From Rhizophagus irregularis (Eukaryota; Glomeromycota; Glomeromycetes; Glomerales; Glomeraceae): a DNA stretch of 64,000 bases. The position numbers and the translations under genes are program-made. Below the pieces are notes generated by a model that saw only the letters and a list, made by a program, of their open reading frames with translations, searched no databases and was not told the DNA's origin. Numbering within the stretch: the stretch's first letter is position 1; each line of letters begins with the position of its first letter. Location: positions 310,001 through 374,000 of the forward strand of contig NC_089459.1 of NCBI RefSeq assembly GCF_026210795.1, written 5' to 3'. This document shows, piece after piece, positions 4,880-46,104 of this stretch.

Positions 4880-6766
4880 AATGAAGTGATAGTTATAAAT
4901 TTTGACCGGTGATTTTTTTCCCTTAATTGAACGTTTTTCATAATTTGACATTATAATAAAGGAATTTCGAATTTCATATTTTTATTATATTTTTAAAATG
5001 TGAGACTTATAATAAAAATAAAGAGAAAAAGAAAAAATTTTATAAATGACTTGTAGCTAAAATTTAAAAGCTGACTTCTTATACACTAAAGAAATTTTTG
5101 GTCTTTAAAAAGGTCTCAAATTTGGATTAATTCATTTAATTGTCGCAAAGTGGTAAAAAAACGCGTGTTTTTATTATATATTAGTGAGAAGGTAACTTTT
5201 TTTTAGTTATTGATATAAACTAATTATTAGTTTGAAATGGCCTTACATATTCCCACAATGTATTTCCCAAGCTCTTAAAAACTTATACCTTACTCTTCTT
5301 GTTTAAATCCTTAATAACTTAAACCTTACTCTTGTTTCAGTTCAGCAGAAATCGATCATGTTGCATAAAATTTTTGATTATAAATACGCCTTTGAATATA
5401 ATTAATAATTAATTTTTGATGATGTTAATAAATCCTAATAATTTCTCATATTATTTAAATTGAATAAATCTAAAAAAAAAATTTGTTCTGTATTAATTTT
5501 ATATGTTTCGTTCAGCAAAATATCATGAAAAATACTGCGGGAGAATAGAAAAATATTTTTACAAAATTTGATTGTTATAATGTTTATATAAACCATACGT
5601 AATGGTAAATTGTCACGTTATTATTGTATTCTATAAAATTTTTATAGTGGAAGTACTTGAGTAATTACTTTTTCTAAGCTCATATATTTTAAACTTTTCT
5701 ACGATTATTACTGCGCCATTCATGACGATCTCTAAAGTTCAACATATAATTTTTTTTTATATTGTTTTCTTTGTTGAAACTCAAGTTGTCGCTCATCTAG
5801 ATGCTTTGCATTATCTGTTATCTTAATCTCTTTTTTATCAGATATTACTTTATTAGTTAATCATAAATCATGAGTAATATTAAATGAATCTAGTTAGTGT
5901 TTTATACGCAACTATAATAAACATGTACTGTACAGGTCCTATAAGGAAAAAGTTAACAATATTTCACTTGTATACCTAATCTTAGTACAATTCAATATTT
6001 GTTATGTCATATAGTTAATTACTATTATACTTTATGAGTGTTACGTGTTTCTTTACCATGGCAAACAGGTTTTTGTTACTTTTGGTCGTTATTGTTTTTA
6101 TTGTTTACCGGCGAATATTTTCTTTTAAAAAAAAAAAGCGGCGAGCTACGTCACGAGTTACAACCTTTCATTAACTTAATGAGTAAAGCCTGCACGGCTG
6201 CACCCCTATCATGGAAATAATAGAAATTCTATTTATAATTATTTTTAATATTCTTGTAACTGAAACATTCTTAGTTTATTGATAAATTCAATTTTTTGGC
6301 GAATTGCTGAAATGATCATTCTCACCTGATTTTCGGTGGCCACAACTAAATTGGTTCGGTCGTTCGGAGAATAAATAAATGAAGTCACATTATGTAATAA
6401 GGAATACTGCGGTGACTAATAGGAATTAATACTACTACTAATATTGGAAAAAATATAGGTCATTAAAATCCCGCATTTTCAATTATTTTTGTTATTTGAG
6501 AACTAAAAAAATGAAGTAAATGAAGCATACCGTTTTGAAATAATTAAAAAAGTTATTTTGTACGCTTCACCGTGTCACAAGAATCTAATAGATTGATAAG
6601 GTTTGGTGAATGACCACTTTTATGGAAATAACCTACAAAACTAGTCTATTTTATTAATAAGCACGGATATATTCCCACCTTCGTAAATATTTCATTTTCA
6701 CAACTTTTTTTTATTCTGAATATATCTTATTTAGATAAATCAATATTTATAATCATATTATTATTC
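4880..6766. other. Intergenic, contains the 3' flank copied at 1-310
   Basis: 4900-5210 matches 1-310. The rest is A+T-rich with no convincing gene. A 38-codon ATG frame at 6058-6174 encodes a hydrophobic stretch (FLLLLVVIVFIVY) followed by a basic tail (RRIFSFKKKKRR). It could be a small single-span membrane peptide, but chance is as likely. Confidence 0.35.
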
Positions 6767-21786: not shown

Positions 21787-24700
21787 ATGGGTGAATATAT
21801 TAGTCCGTTAAAAAAATCATTTAATTTGCATCAAGAAGCAGTAGAAAATGGTGATAAAGATGCACAATTTAATTTAGCTATGTGTTATTACAATGGTGAA
21901 GGAACACTAAAGAATCTAGACAAAGCCTTTTATTGGTATCAAAAAGGAGCAGAAAATGATGATAAAAATGCAATGAATAATTTAGCAAGATGCTATTACA
22001 ATGGTGAAGGAACAGAAAAGAATCCAGAGAAAGCCTTTTATTGGTATCAAAAAGCAGCAGAAAATGGTATTGAAGTTGCAATGCATAATTTAGCTATATG
22101 TTATTACAATGGTGAAGGAACAGAAAAAAATTTAGAAAGAGCCTTTTATTGGTATCAAAAAGCAGCAGAAAATGATAATAAAAATGCAATGAATAATTTA
22201 GCTAACTGCTATAAAAATGGTGAAGGAACAGAAAAAAATCTAGAAAAAGCATTTTATTGGTATCAAAAAGCAGCAGAAAATGATAATAAAAATGCAATGA
22301 ATAATTTAGCAAAATGCTATAAAAATGGTGAAGGAACAGAAAAGAATCTAGAAAAAGCATTTTATTGGTTTCAAAAAGCAGCAGAAAATGATAATAAAGA
22401 TGCAATGAATAATTTAGCCATATGTTATAAAAATGCTGAAGGAACAGAAAGGGATTTTGATAAAGCCTTTTATTGGTATCAAAAAGCAGTAGAAAATGGT
22501 ATTGAAGTTGCAATGCATAATTTAGCTGTATGCTATTACAATGGTGAAGGAACAGAAAAGAATCCAGAGACAGCCTTTTGTTGGTTTCAAAAAGCAGCAG
22601 AAAATGGTATTGAAGTTGCAATGCATAATTTAGCTATATGCTATTACAATGGTGAAGGAACAAAAAAAAATTTAGAAAGAGCCTTTAATTGGTCTCAAAA
22701 AGCAGCAGAAAATGATAATAAAAATGCAATGAATAATTTAGCAAAATGCTATAAAAATGGTGAAGGAACAGAAAAGAATCTAGAAAAAGCATTTTATTGG
22801 TTTCAAAAAGCAGCAGAAAATGATAATAAAGATGCAATGGATAATTTAGCCATATGTTATAAAAATGGTGAAGGAACGGAAAGGAATTTTGATAAAGCCT
22901 TTTATTGGTATCAAAAAGCAGCAGAAAATGGTATTGAAGTTGCCATGCATAATTTAGCTATATGTTATTACAATGGTGAGGGAACAGAAAAGAATTTAGA
23001 AAAATCCTTTTATTGGTATCAAAAAGCAGCAGAAAATGATGATAAAAATGCAATGAATAATTTAGCAAAATGCTATAAAAATGGTGAAGGAACAGAAAAG
23101 AATCTAGAAAAAGCATTTTATTGGTTTCAAAAAGCAGCAGAAAATGATAATAAAGATGCAATGAATAATTTAGCCATATGTTATATAAATGGTGAAGGAA
23201 CAGAAAAGAATCTAAAAAAGGTCTTTTATTGGTGTCAGAAAGCAGCAAAAAGTGGAGATAACATTGCAATGAATAAATTAGCCATATGTTATGAAAATGG
23301 TGAAGGAACAGAAAAGAATTTAGAAGCAGCATTTTATTGGTATCAAAAAGCTGCCGAAAATAGTGATAAAAATGCACAATTTAATTTAGCTGTATGTTAT
23401 TATAATGGTGAAGGAATAGAAAAGAATCTAGAAAAAGCCTTTTATTGGTTTCAAAAAGCATCAGAAAATGGTCATGAAGATGCAATGAATAATTTAGCCA
23501 TATGTTATAATAATGGAGAAGGAACAGAAAAAAATTTAGAAAAAACCTTTTATTGGTATCAAAAAGCAGCAGAAAATGGTAATGAAGTTGCAATGGATGG
23601 TTTAGCTAAATATTATTATATTAATAATGAAACAGAAAATAATCTAGAAAAAGCCTTTTATTGGTATCAAAAAGCAGCAGAAAATGGTAATAAAGAGTCA
23701 ATGACCAGTCTAGCCACACTTTATTACAATGGTAATGGGATAGAAAGGAATTTTGATAAAGCTTTTTATTGGTATCAAAAAGCAGCAGAAAATGGTAATG
23801 AATTTGCAATGGTCAATTTAGCCACACTTTATTACAATGGTAAAGGAACAGAAGAGAATTTAGAAAAAGCCTTTTATTGGTGTCAAAAAGCAGCAGAAAA
23901 CGGTAATAAAGATGCAATGAGCAGTTTAGCCCTATTTTATGAAAATGGTATAGGAGTAGAAAAAAATATAGAAAAATCTTTTTACTGGTTTCAAAAGGCA
24001 GCAGAAAATAATGATGAAAATTTACATAATAGTAATGAGTTATGTAAAGAATGTGAACAACCATTTATTGATTATCATTGGTGTCAACAATGTAATACTA
24101 AAAAATTTCAACAAGATTCTTCAAATTGGACAAGTAAAAATAAACTTATTGATGAATTTATTCAAGAAGCACAACTAAATGCTAGAAATAGTTATGAAGT
24201 TTTGGAGTGGATACCTTATAATAGATTGGAAAATATTAATTATTTTAGTAAAGGTGGATTCGGTGAAATCCATAAAGCTATTTGGTTAGATGGACCTATT
24301 GATAGTTGGAATTTTAATATGCAACAGTGGAATAGACAATCAGATTATGAAGTTATTCTAAAAATTCCTATTGGTTCTTCAAGTTTTGATGAATTTTTAA
24401 GTGAGGTAGGATTTATTTTATTTATTTATTTTATTTATTATTAAAATTAATAATTCTAATTATTTATATAGTGGAAGTATAATTATAATTGTCAGAAAAA
24501 ATCATTTTCAAAATTTATTCAATTCTTTGGGATTACTCAAGAGCCAAATAATTTAAATTATATAATAGTAATGAGTTATGCAAAAGAAGGAAGCTTAAGA
24601 AAATGTTTATCTAGCATAGTTAAACTTAAATGGCAATATAAACTACAATTATTAAAAAATATTATTTTGGGACTTAAGATAATACATGAATCAAATCTTG

Positions 24701-42804: not shown

Positions 42805-45800
42805 TTAATTTTCATCTGCTTTAATATCTAAATAATTAAATATTAAATATAATTAATTTCACATAAATAATTTGCAAGATTAATTCTTTTATATATCATA
42901 ATACATACCTAATGACCCCAGACCCTTAATTATATAATCATTCAAATCTTCACTTACTAGTATTTCATTTGCTTTTACACTAGCTTGTGAATCTTCATTT
43001 TCAGAAATTTCATTCGACTTTTTACTAGTACTCTCATCTGTTTTAATAATTAAATAATTAAATTAATTTTATATAAATAATTTGCAAGATTAATTCTTTT
43101 ATATCTCATAATACATACCTAATGACCCCAGACCCTTAATTACACAATCATTCAAATCTTCACTTACTAGCATTTCATTTGCTTTTACACTAGCTTGTGA
43201 ATTTTCACTTTCAAGAATTTCATTCAATTTTTTACTAGTAAAATCAAGTAAGCGACTTGTAAAACATGCTTTAGGATGAGATTTAGTAGCAAGATCGCTA
43301 TGCCCAATTGGTGCATTTATAAATTCCATAATGTTGCTTTTTAATTCTTCATTAATTTCATAATCTTTAGGACGGAAAATCCATTTTTTAATAATTTCTA
43401 ATACTTCTTTAGAAGATGGCCTTTTTAATGGATTTTCATTCCAACATTTTTTCATTAAATCTACATAACATTGTGGAGTAATTTCAATAATTTCAGGACG
43501 TTCACCTTTACAAATACTTAAACTAAGATGAATATCATGTGCTCTATTATTAAATGGTGGTATTCCAGATGTAAACTCCCACATAATCATAGAAAAACTA
43601 TATATATCACTAGTTGGAGTATAAGACTTGCCTCTTAAAACTTCAGGAGCCATAAATGGTATAACACCATAAATATCATACTTTTTCAAAAACGATTTTA
43701 CAGGTTGACATAATCCTAAATCACTAATATAAAATTTATCCTTATTCCTATCATTATGATTTAAAATATTACCATCATGAAAATCACAATGAATAAGATT
43801 TTTTTCATGTATCTTACTAAGTCCAGAGATAATTCTGTACAACATATCTAATTTTTGATTCCAATTATTTACAACTATTCTTGTTAAATTTTCTCTTAAG
43901 TTACCTTTATTTGCATAATACATTACTACCATATATTTTGATGTATTTGGATCTTTTGTGAATCCATAAAATTCTATAATATCATTTGAACTTAAAACAT
44001 TTGTATGATATTCCCACTATAAAAAATAATAATAATTTATTAATATAAATAAATTTTAATTTAAATTAAAAATAGAAAATAATATACTCTCATACTTCTT
44101 TCAAAAATTCATTTAAATTTTCATTTAAATTCTTGTGACATTTAAGAATTACTTCTTCATTATTCTTTAACCAAGTAGCTTTAAATATAGTACCAAATCC
44201 TCCCTCATTAAGATATTCAACATTTTTAAATTTGTTATAAGGAATCCATCTTAATTTTTTTTTAAGAATAAAATCATCTATAATTGTATTACGACTTTAT
44301 CCAAATCTATAAATTTAAATAATTAAATTATATTATAAATTGTAATATAATTTATACAAAATAAATTATTACTTACTCTAAAATTTAAATAGGAATTTAA
44401 TGAAATATAAGTCTTAGTTTTTAGATAAATACATATAATAACCTATGATTTACAACTTACCGACTAAAGTAACAGATATTTTTCAAATAAAAGAATTCAG
44501 TTAACAAATAAATATTATATAAATATATAACAATAGAGATACTTACAAGCTAGATTATAAATAATTTTTAAATAAAGAAATTAGTTAGTTTAAATTATAT
44601 GTAAGTATTATAACAATAAGTAATAATAGAATTAAATAAATAACTTATAACTTACGATCTATTAATAAATAAAGAAATTAGTTAGTTTAAATTATATGTA
44701 AATATTATAACAATAAGTAATAATAGAATTAAATAAATAACTTACGAGCTATATTATTTAATAATTTTTTAAATAAAGAAATTAGTTAGTTTAAATTATA
44801 TGTAAATATTATAAAAATAAGTAATAATAGAATTAAATAAATAACTTATAACTTGCGATCTATTAATAAATAAAAGAAATTAGTTAGTTTAAATTATATG
44901 TAAATATTATAATAATAGAATTAAATAAATAACTTATAACTTACGATCTATTAAATAAAGAAATTAGTTAATTTAAATTATATGTAAATATTATAAAAAT
45001 AAGTAATAATAAAATTAAATAAATAACTTACTTGCTACATTATTTAATAATTTTTTAAATAAAGAAATTAGTTAGTTTAAATTATATGTAAATATTATAA
45101 AAATAAATAAATAACTTATAACTTACGATCTATTAATAATAAAGAAATTAGTTAGTTTAAATTATATGTAAATATTATAACAATAAGTAATAATAGAATT
45201 AAATAAATAATTTACTTCCTATATTATTTAATAAAGAAATTAGTTAGTTTAAATTATATGTAAATATTATAACAATAAGTAATAATAGAATTAAATAAAT
45301 AACTTACCATCTATAAAATAATTTTTTAAATAAAGAAATTAGTTAAATTATATGCAAATATTATAACAATAAGTAGTAATAATAGAATTAAATAATAACT
45401 TACGAACTATATTATTTAATAATTTTTTTTTAATAAAGAAATTAGTTAGTTAAATTATATGTAAATATTATAACAATAAGATAATCATGTATTTTTCCTA
45501 AAAAAATTTCTAATTTTTAGGAATTCTACACAATCCTAAATATAATCATATATTTTTCCTAAAAAAAATTTCCTAATTCAGTAAAATAAAAATTAGGAAA
45601 TTTTTTAGGAAAAATACATGATTATAACAATAAGTAATAATAGATATAAATAAATAACTTACGAACTATATTATTTAATAATTTTTTAAATAAAGAAATT
45701 AGTTTAGTTTAAATTATATGTAAATATTATAACAATAAGTAATAATAGAATTAAATAAATAAATCATGACTTACCAACTAAATTAAATTACAAAATAATT

Positions 45801-46104
45801 TTTTCAGATAATGAAATTAGTTAAATTATATAAATAATATAAATATAGATATCATATAACTTACACCCTGTAGTATTATTAATTATTAATTAGTTAAATA
45901 TAAAGATAATATAAAAGTATTTACTGTAAATATATATATATATTACTTACAATCTAGTTATTTAAATTAAGAATATAATTAGTTGAATTATGTAAAATAT
46001 TAAACATGAATTGTTTATAAATAAAAACTTAGTATTTCGGCTTGTTTGATATACCTTCAATACATTTGTCCATTACTATATCAAAATTCTCAAATTCTTC
46101 CCAA
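42805..46104 (-). CDS. Protein kinase with a micro-exon array and a duplicated 3' exon
   Basis: Minus-strand exons: A 46104-46055 (WEEFENFDIVMDKCIE, phase 1 out), a row of 3-nt candidate exons (separate entry), K1 from about 44294 or 44277 to 44096, K2 44016-43119, K3 43037-42909 and K4 42827-42805 (stop). K1 has RNTIIDDFILKKKLRWIPY and the glycine loop LNEGGFGTIFKATW with VILK. K2 has IEFYGFTKDPNTSKYMVV, HCDFHDGNIL, SDLGL (DLG for DFG), APEVL and the C-lobe. K3 duplicates the K2 tail and K4 adds DIKADEN. All junctions keep phase with introns of 79-109 nt except one enlarged by a MITE. The closest relative in the window is the kinase part of the 21787 gene. Exons upstream of A are not resolved. 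A Cys-rich frame at about 46150-46300 (FVCHICNDANACTCDQRFC) carries stops. Confidence 0.75.
42830..43118. repeat. Tandem duplication of a 3' exon with its intron
   Basis: The 210-bp unit at 42830-43037 repeats 43040-43250. Both contain ACATACCTAATGACCCCAGA, CCCTTAATTA, CAAATCTTCACTTACTAG and TTTGCTTTTACACTAGCTTG in the same order. On the minus strand this yields exon K3 (DESTSKKSNEISENEDSQAS, then NDYIIKGLGSL) as a near copy of the last part of K2 (NDCVIKGLGSL). Confidence 0.85.
44377..45953 (-). repeat. Tandem array of intron-sized units each holding a 3-nt candidate exon
   Basis: Each unit (about 83-109 bp) has on the minus strand a polypyrimidine/A+T tract ending in AG, three bases, then GTAAGT or a variant. 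In gene order the triplets are ATT 45951-45953, GGT 45865-45867, TTG 45775-45777, TTC 45663-45665, TTC 45404-45406, ATG 45308-45310, GAA 45216-45218, ATC 45127-45129, CAA 45032-45034, ATC 44945-44947, ATC 44857-44859 (GC donor), CTC 44746-44748, ATC 44656-44658, CTT 44547-44549, TCG 44461-44463. A last unit has a single A at 44377. The intronic parts (AAATAAAGAAATTAGTTAG, AATTATATGTAAATATTATA on the plus strand) are nearly identical between copies. Confidence 0.8.
45481..45625. mobile_element. Mutator-like MITE inside the array, 9-bp target duplication
   Basis: 145 bp with ends ATAATCATGTATTTTTCCTA and its reverse complement, flanked by AACAATAAG at 45472-45480 and 45626-45634. A 9-bp duplication is typical of Mutator-like elements. 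It interrupts one intron unit of the micro-exon array and enlarges it to 256 nt without touching the splice sites. An internal copy of the end sequence (ATAATCATATATTTTTCCTA) is also present. Confidence 0.85.

What the first reader, a model, noticed from the sequence alone, without database searches (positions are those of the whole stretch)
44377..45953. Tandem array of candidate 3-nucleotide micro-exons with hypervariable triplets
On the minus strand at least 15 intron-sized units in a row each contain AG, exactly three bases, then GTAAGT (one GC donor, one GTAAAT). Units share long nearly identical intronic sequence, yet the triplets are ATT, GGT, TTG, TTC, TTC, ATG, GAA, ATC, CAA, ATC, ATC, CTC, ATC, CTT, TCG. 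In the subfamily with AATATAG before and GTAAGTTATTTATTT after, the triplets CTC, GAA and TTC differ while both flanks are constant. Every gap is 83-109 nt (one is longer by a MITE), the intron size of all genes in the window. The flanking exons are phase-compatible: exon A ends in phase 1, and including all triplets plus a final single A gives DWFVLHGNPNHPHPF then DRNTIIDDF with no stop. Skipping any triplet also keeps the frame. This would be a combinatorial, one-residue-at-a-time variable segment just before a kinase domain. I know of no described system of this form.
Basis: partly seen in the sequence, partly recalled or inferred. Interest (0 to 1): 0.93.

Follow-up and report, generated by a model that had tools for sequence, protein, structure and literature searches.

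The report
Arrays of one-codon exons in kinases
In the root-symbiotic fungus Rhizophagus irregularis, a family of kinase genes appears to spell the front of its protein one codon at a time, as long rows of three-base exons whose letters change much faster than the introns between them.

Summary
The window copy has 15 AG-NNN-donor units plus a one-base exon. The genome, Rhizophagus irregularis, has 47 exact copies of the array's end motif. I read 31 arrays: 15-78 units each, 1117 triplets, and a kinase exon follows in 31 of 31. In them 1025 of 1042 GTAAGT lie exactly 3 nt after an AG. The flanking exons put the triplets in phase 1. In that phase, stops are nearly absent at junctions of neighbouring triplets (2 of 1026; 22.5 in shuffles), but not at junctions that skipping one triplet would make (22 of 943; 20.3 in shuffles). 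This is what selection on mRNA joining every triplet in order would leave; it argues against combinatorial skipping. Array ends are conserved. Inner triplets differ about ten times as often as the near-identical introns around them, while introns are shared almost unchanged between genes. Seven public gene models seem to contain such runs, in another phase; one was checked on DNA. I saw no transcript. The window copy carries an in-frame stop. My searches found no described gene of this structure. The function, a fast-evolving N-terminal specificity segment, is inferred.

The parts
46055..46073 (-). exon A, coding part (ATG to donor), ends in phase 1
45951..45953 (-). 3-nt exon 1, ATT (conserved start of array)
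   Evidence: ATT-GGN start in 30 of 31 arrays
45865..45867 (-). 3-nt exon 2, GGT
45775..45777 (-). 3-nt exon 3, TTG
45663..45665 (-). 3-nt exon 4, TTC
45481..45626 (.). inverted-repeat (MITE-like) insert inside the intron after exon 4
45404..45406 (-). 3-nt exon 5, TTC
45308..45310 (-). 3-nt exon 6, ATG
45216..45218 (-). 3-nt exon 7, GAA (donor GTAAAT)
45127..45129 (-). 3-nt exon 8, ATC
45032..45034 (-). 3-nt exon 9, CAA
44945..44947 (-). 3-nt exon 10, ATC
44857..44859 (-). 3-nt exon 11, ATC (donor GCAAGT)
44746..44748 (-). 3-nt exon 12, CTC
44656..44658 (-). 3-nt exon 13, ATC
44547..44549 (-). 3-nt exon 14, CTT (conserved end)
   Evidence: CTT-TTG end in 22 of 31 arrays
44461..44463 (-). 3-nt exon 15, TCG (last triplet; TTG in 40, TCG in 6, TCA in 1 of 47 loci)
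44377..44377 (-). one-base exon, A, shifts phase 1 to phase 2
44096..44306 (-). kinase exon K1 (phase 2 start; in-frame TAA at its third codon in this copy)
43099..44016 (-). kinase exon K2, 305 codons open to the stop
   Evidence: PF07714 and PF00069 are listed for relatives

Best explanation
The array is a row of real, constitutively joined one-codon exons at the N-terminus of a family of kinase genes of Rhizophagus irregularis. The upstream exon ends in phase 1, each triplet keeps phase 1, a one-base exon moves to phase 2, and the kinase exon follows. Each 3-nt exon has a complete short intron on both sides. A 3' and a 5' splice site three bases apart can hardly be bound at once, so the introns are probably removed one after another, each removal setting the upstream exon against the next donor (inferred). 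Rows grow, shrink and swap units by recombination within and between genes, which keeps introns alike; inner triplets diverge, most likely under diversifying selection (inferred). The kinase thus carries a fast-changing N-terminal segment of about 15 to 78 residues, most likely a specificity or docking segment in recognition signalling (function inferred, perhaps one chance in three).
For: Spacing: 599 of 613 and, in a check set, 426 of 429 GTAAGT lie 3 nt after AG. Frame: exon 2 or exon A in phase 1, one-base exon, K1 in phase 2; L014 joined so gives an unbroken 474-residue protein from 37 triplets plus one base. One unit skipped: 22 of 943 against 20.3. Conserved ends. Donor GTAAGT in 1025 of 1117 array units, GTATGA in 15 of 15 K1-K2 introns of the same genes. 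Kinase exon K1 downstream in 31 of 31 arrays. Introns identical between arrays with differing triplets: 95 of 112 on the 5' side, 68 of 112 on the 3' side. A public model, P0037, follows the triplets of its own locus, ten in a row unbroken.
Against: No transcript or peptide was seen. None of the proteins fetched shares 6 or more residues in a row with the phase-1 reading of the 31 arrays; the matches of that length are all to phase 0, and no hit covers more than 76% of a region whose last two thirds is kinase. Public models that include runs mostly read phase 0. 92 of 1117 units have variant donors and were added by my gap-filling; 60 gaps over 135 nt stay unexplained, and a missing exon there need not keep the row intact. 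Two phase-1 stops remain, one in L027 and one in L012 at a doubtful unit. The window copy itself has an in-frame stop. The triplet-to-intron ratio is inflated by choosing pairs with low intron divergence, and the few pairs touching array ends (11) also show faster triplets (5 of 33 against 50 of 2099). The branch-site count has no control.
Confidence: 0.82

Rival explanations
1. Combinatorial micro-exon gene: triplets are skipped freely, giving many isoforms that differ by single residues.
For: All triplets are multiples of three, so skipping keeps the frame. Micro-exon genes of flatworms work so, by PMC7653826 (passages).
Confidence: 0.08
2. Neutral satellite in one large intron: the row is an intronic minisatellite spliced out whole, with splice-like motifs carried along by duplication.
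For: Units are clearly repeats; rows differ in length between genes. Joining exon 2 to the one-base exon and K1 would be in frame without any triplet. Most public models start inside the kinase or leave the row out.
Against: Exact 3-nt spacing in diverged units, conserved ends, and the neighbour-specific stop depletion. A complete intron of about 96 nt lies between any two triplets.
Confidence: 0.06
3. One-codon exons read in phase 0, with a 5-nt last exon (AGTAA) instead of a one-base exon, as in public models.
For: P0037, P0043, P0113, P0115, P0118 and P0021 have runs rich in Leu, Ile, Gly and Met that end LSK before the kinase block; P0004 is similar.
Against: P0004 reads the acidic exon out of its usual frame. 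In L024 the 5-nt exon has no GT donor and in L013, L014 and L022 only GTGTT, while the donor after the single base is kept. Phase-0 stop triplets are rare (3 of 1117) but so are all TGN and TAN (11 and 0), so that is not stop-specific; the neighbour-specific depletion exists in phase 1 only.
Confidence: 0.08
4. Mobile introns (introner-like): an intron copied itself every three bases into a former coding stretch, so triplets are old codons and introns young copies.
For: Introns are far more alike than triplets, also between chromosomes.
Against: The exact 3-nt step over up to 78 units needs an insertion rule not known to me; the four single hits outside arrays looked like relics of this gene family, not introns of other genes; duplications of several units keep their triplets (21 of 21 identical two-intron pairs).
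Confidence: 0.05

Closest known systems
Micro-exon genes (MEGs) of schistosomes and tapeworms (PMC7653826, passages seen)
   Same: Many consecutive very small exons, lengths divisible by three; gene finders and read mappers miss them.
   Different: Here every exon of the row is 3 nt, in one phase, up to 78 in a row, built as a tandem repeat with near-identical introns; the evidence is against free skipping; the gene is a kinase.
Aphid bicycle genes (PMC9168663, passages seen)
   Same: Many small exons with one constant phase; one gene has more than 100 microexons; fast-evolving proteins.
   Different: Bicycle genes are insect effector candidates; uniform one-codon exons and shared introns are not described in the passages I saw.
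HET-D/HET-E WD40 repeats of Podospora (PMC1805685, abstract seen)
   Same: Repeats exchanged within and between genes, constant frame, a few codons under diversifying selection.
   Different: There the constant part is translated into WD40 repeats; here the constant part is intron and only the variable codon stays.
Single-nucleotide exons: Arabidopsis APC11 (PMC4674806, abstract and introduction) and Fusarium CYP621A (PMC12940212, abstract)
   Same: A one-base exon needed for the frame.
   Different: Here one such exon closes each array across a gene family; not yet shown by RNA.
PRDM9 zinc fingers and TAL effector repeats (recalled, no call)
   Same: Near-identical units with one or few hypervariable codons.
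   Different: Their constant part is translated.

Membership tests
Micro-exon gene (definition in PMC7653826) | at least seven exons, half or more of them micro-exons under 70 nt divisible by three, runs of at least four | tested here: met
   On sequence prediction only: 15-78 triplets per array, and the L014 model has 37 of 42 exons of 3 nt. By this definition it is a MEG in gene structure.
Micro-exon gene (definition in PMC7653826) | protein variants made by exon skipping | tested here: inconclusive
   Stop pattern argues against regular skipping; no RNA seen.
Introner / mobile intron (definition recalled) | copies inserted in many unrelated genes | tested here: inconclusive
   Four single hits inspected were relics of the same family; all array introns read lie in this family; a genome census did not complete.
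Concerted repeat family under diversifying selection (as het-d/het-e, PMC1805685) | units exchanged within and between loci | tested here: met
   112 identical intron pairs between arrays; ordinary introns of gene pairs that share array introns are 73-96% identical. The array comparison takes the best of many pairs.
Concerted repeat family under diversifying selection (as het-d/het-e, PMC1805685) | variable codons under positive selection | tested here: inconclusive
   Triplets 46 of 291 bases different against introns 270 of 19121, biased by pair choice; no dN/dS on isolates.
Recursive splicing (definition recalled) | new 5' splice site formed or exposed after each step | not testable with these tools
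   Geometry fits (AG-NNN-GTAAGT), no RNA intermediates available.
Protein kinase family PF07714/PF00069 | domain downstream of the array | tested here: met
   K1 downstream of 31 of 31 arrays; domains precomputed for relatives.

The most novel reading that the evidence does not exclude
A gene family writes a variable protein segment as a minisatellite of one-codon exons. The constant part of the repeat is pure intron, so units can be exchanged between genes without any constant protein repeat, and each exchange adds, removes or swaps single residues next to a kinase. Up to about 80 introns are removed in order, and the segments form a recognition repertoire in a fungus whose many nuclei share one cytoplasm.
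Probability: 0.35. Interest if true: 0.97.

Novelty: categorically new. Interest (0 to 1): 0.93.

Why it matters
If transcripts confirm it, these would be rows of single-codon exons unlike any that my searches found; before its own one-base case, PMC4674806 (abstract) gave 6 nt as the smallest constitutive exon and 3 nt as the smallest alternative one. The rows would test how a spliceosome copes with splice sites three bases apart dozens of times in succession. They would show a way to diversify a protein in which the repeat scaffold is thrown away as intron. They would explain why public models of this kinase family so often begin inside the kinase or in another phase. The variable segments are candidates for recognition genes of arbuscular mycorrhizal fungi. 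On strict wording the genes meet the published MEG count rule; I rate the kind as new because uniform one-codon exons, the intron-only repeat frame and its exchange between genes are not part of it.

Tried and rejected
Neutral satellite: rejected by spacing, conserved ends and the neighbour-specific stop test. Phase 0: disfavoured. A mutation hotspot at every AG-NNN-GTAAGT: disfavoured, since the last triplet, in the same surroundings, is nearly constant (47 loci). A free mobile intron: disfavoured. A genome census of any three consecutive units was not obtained: the same request did not complete seven times, so I cannot say whether other gene families hold such rows. Searches for other isolates' versions found only P0037 itself and eight further proteins matching mainly in the kinase part. 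Structure prediction was not tried; a spliced protein is not among its allowed inputs.

Rows dropped before counts: of the 20 regions, L010, L018, L025 and L026 (no array plus kinase) were left out; L001-L008 overlap L009-L011. Only neighbours at most 135 nt apart were counted as junctions. The first 17 arrays come from the first 100 of 768 listed places, so from contigs C1-C4 plus the window; the 14 others were chosen by me from the end-motif list, not at random.

Full report
What is in the window. On the minus strand exon A (46073-46055) ends in phase 1. Fifteen units of AG, three bases and a donor follow (45953 to 44461), then AG, one base (44377) and GTAAGT, then the kinase exons K1 (44306-44096) and K2 (44016-43099). 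All 13 AG-NNN-GTAAGT matches of the window's minus strand lie here; a first-order Markov model expects 0.53. Two further units have GTAAAT and GCAAGT. An inverted-repeat insert lengthens one intron.

Where it comes from. The window is C31:310001-374000 of a 146.7 Mb, 32-contig assembly. Public Rhizophagus irregularis proteins named OCT59 lie on contigs of exactly the lengths of C4, C7 and C16 (P0013, P0105 and P0026; lengths). So the organism is R. irregularis, an arbuscular mycorrhizal fungus.

It is a family. One unit subtype has 768 exact matches (363 + 405; 0 in the reversed control). The 20 regions cover the first 100 listed places. Sixteen hold an array followed by the kinase; four hold single units or fragments that I read as relics. 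With the window this makes 17 arrays. The end motif GTTACTTTAG-NNN-GTAAGTTGT occurs 47 times, on 23 contigs; a related motif with up to 2 mismatches occurs 212 times (1 in the control). A search with one member's protein gave 91 long kinase matches of 68-99% identity, all of the 91 candidates that were scored, so a lower bound. Fourteen more arrays were fetched as a check set. K1 lies downstream in 31 of 31. The 31 arrays hold 1117 triplets, 15 to 78 each; 1025 have GTAAGT, and 92 with variant donors were added by a gap-filling rule. Of 137 gaps over 135 nt between GTAAGT units, 60 remain after filling.

Spacing. In the first set 599 of 613 GTAAGT have AG exactly 3 nt upstream, at a background AG frequency of 3%; other distances up to 15 are near zero except 1, where triplets beginning with AG count. 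Introns of the first set have a median of 96 nt. A CTAAY branch-like site is present in 808 of 1026 introns (A at a median of 33 nt before the 3' end), a looser YTRAY in 204 more; no control was run.

Reading frame. Exon 2, where present, carries an acidic repeat in a clear frame and ends in phase 1, as exon A does. K1 begins A TTT GGA in phase 2. Triplets plus the one-base exon connect the two; without the one-base exon the frame fails. The single base is A in most copies shown, C in L013 and G in L024. L014 joined so gives an unbroken 474-residue protein.

Stop test. In phase 1 a stop arises when a triplet ending in T is followed by one beginning AA, AG or GA. Pooled it is 2 of 1026 against 22.5, with 0 of 2000 shuffles as low; for GTAAGT units only, 1 of 857 against 17.5. 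With one unit skipped it is 22 of 943 against 20.3. After removing repeated junctions of the first set, T-ending triplets give 2 of 106 and others 40 of 256 (Fisher p = 3.7e-5). The protein made by joining every triplet in order has been kept open; proteins made by skipping have not. This is the strongest evidence that the triplets are exons. Phase 0 shows no such neighbour effect: stop triplets are rare (3 of 1117), but so are all TGN (11) and TAN (0).

Ends fixed, middle variable. 30 of 31 arrays have ATT-GGN within their first six triplets (L021 does not), and 22 of 31 end CTT-TTG. In the 47 end-motif loci the last triplet is TTG in 40, TCG in 6, TCA in 1; TTG and TCG give the same Phe codon in phase 1. 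Inner triplets are different: units with at most 2 mismatches in 80 flanking bases differ at the three positions in 53, 31 and 44% of 724 pairs, which are not independent. In 97 non-redundant pairs over two consecutive introns, inner triplets differ at 46 of 291 bases, introns at 270 of 19121; 11 pairs touching array ends give 5 of 33 and 50 of 2099. Choosing pairs by low intron divergence inflates the ratio. The 21 identical two-intron pairs of the first set all keep the triplet, so duplication carries triplets along and change comes later.

Introns travel between genes. 112 pairs of introns from different arrays are identical; the 5' triplet differs in 95, the 3' triplet in 68. For 15 of 105 gene pairs that share array introns with at most 2 edits, the ordinary K1-K2 introns are 73-96% identical; the array value is the best of many comparisons. 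This looks like concerted evolution, as described for the WD40 repeats of het-d and het-e (PMC1805685, abstract).

Public models. Seven proteins have runs that look triplet-coded before the kinase block: P0037, P0043, P0113, P0115 and P0021, and P0004 and P0118 of R. diaphanus, mostly in phase 0. Only P0037 was checked on DNA: it maps to C11, and its segment follows the L029 triplets in order, ten in a row unbroken, with some left out. Whether RNA lay behind these models I do not know. P0093 and P0097 resemble phase-1 readings by eye only; no fetched protein shares six residues in a row with a phase-1 array reading. R. diaphanus probably has such arrays too.

Literature. Searches for microexons with Rhizophagus or mycorrhizal fungi, 3-nt and single-nucleotide exons, runs of microexons and gene structure in Rhizophagus listed no such structure. 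The library holds open-licence papers only. PMC10234402 (passages) mentions 2,533 kinases and long-read mapping with an intron cap of 3000 nt; a row longer than that could be lost (my inference).

How it probably works. Shown from sequence: architecture, spacing, frame, stop pattern, conserved ends, intron sharing. Inferred: one-after-another splicing, diversifying selection, a role of the variable segment in recognition or docking.

Noticed in passing
L010 near 4334, L018 near 4595 (minus), L025 near 4366 (minus), L026 near 4031: Single units or short fragments of arrays without a whole gene; L018 has decayed kinase pieces, L026 five units in a row. They look like relics of the family.
   Followed up: partly
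window 45481-45626: Inverted-repeat element inserted in one intron of the array.
   Followed up: partly
31 arrays: The second base of the triplets is T or G in 1052 of 1117 and A or C in 65; TAN triplets are absent. I have no tested reason; avoiding extra AG or GT near the splice sites is a guess.
   Followed up: no
31 arrays: Between neighbours, phase-1 His and Val are also rarer than in shuffles (inner units: His 39 against 56.2, Val 33 against 50.9), not so with one unit skipped. Duplicated stretches may cause this.
   Followed up: no
31 arrays: Identical introns keep their 3' triplet more often than their 5' triplet; the 3' part of introns may mark unit subfamilies.
   Followed up: no
window 21812-24009: About 20 copies of a 108-base tandem repeat; the consensus looks like Sel1-type repeats (recalled).
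   Followed up: no
L016 near 5720-5980 (oriented): Unrelated sequence replaces the array end and the start of K1 in this copy.
   Followed up: no
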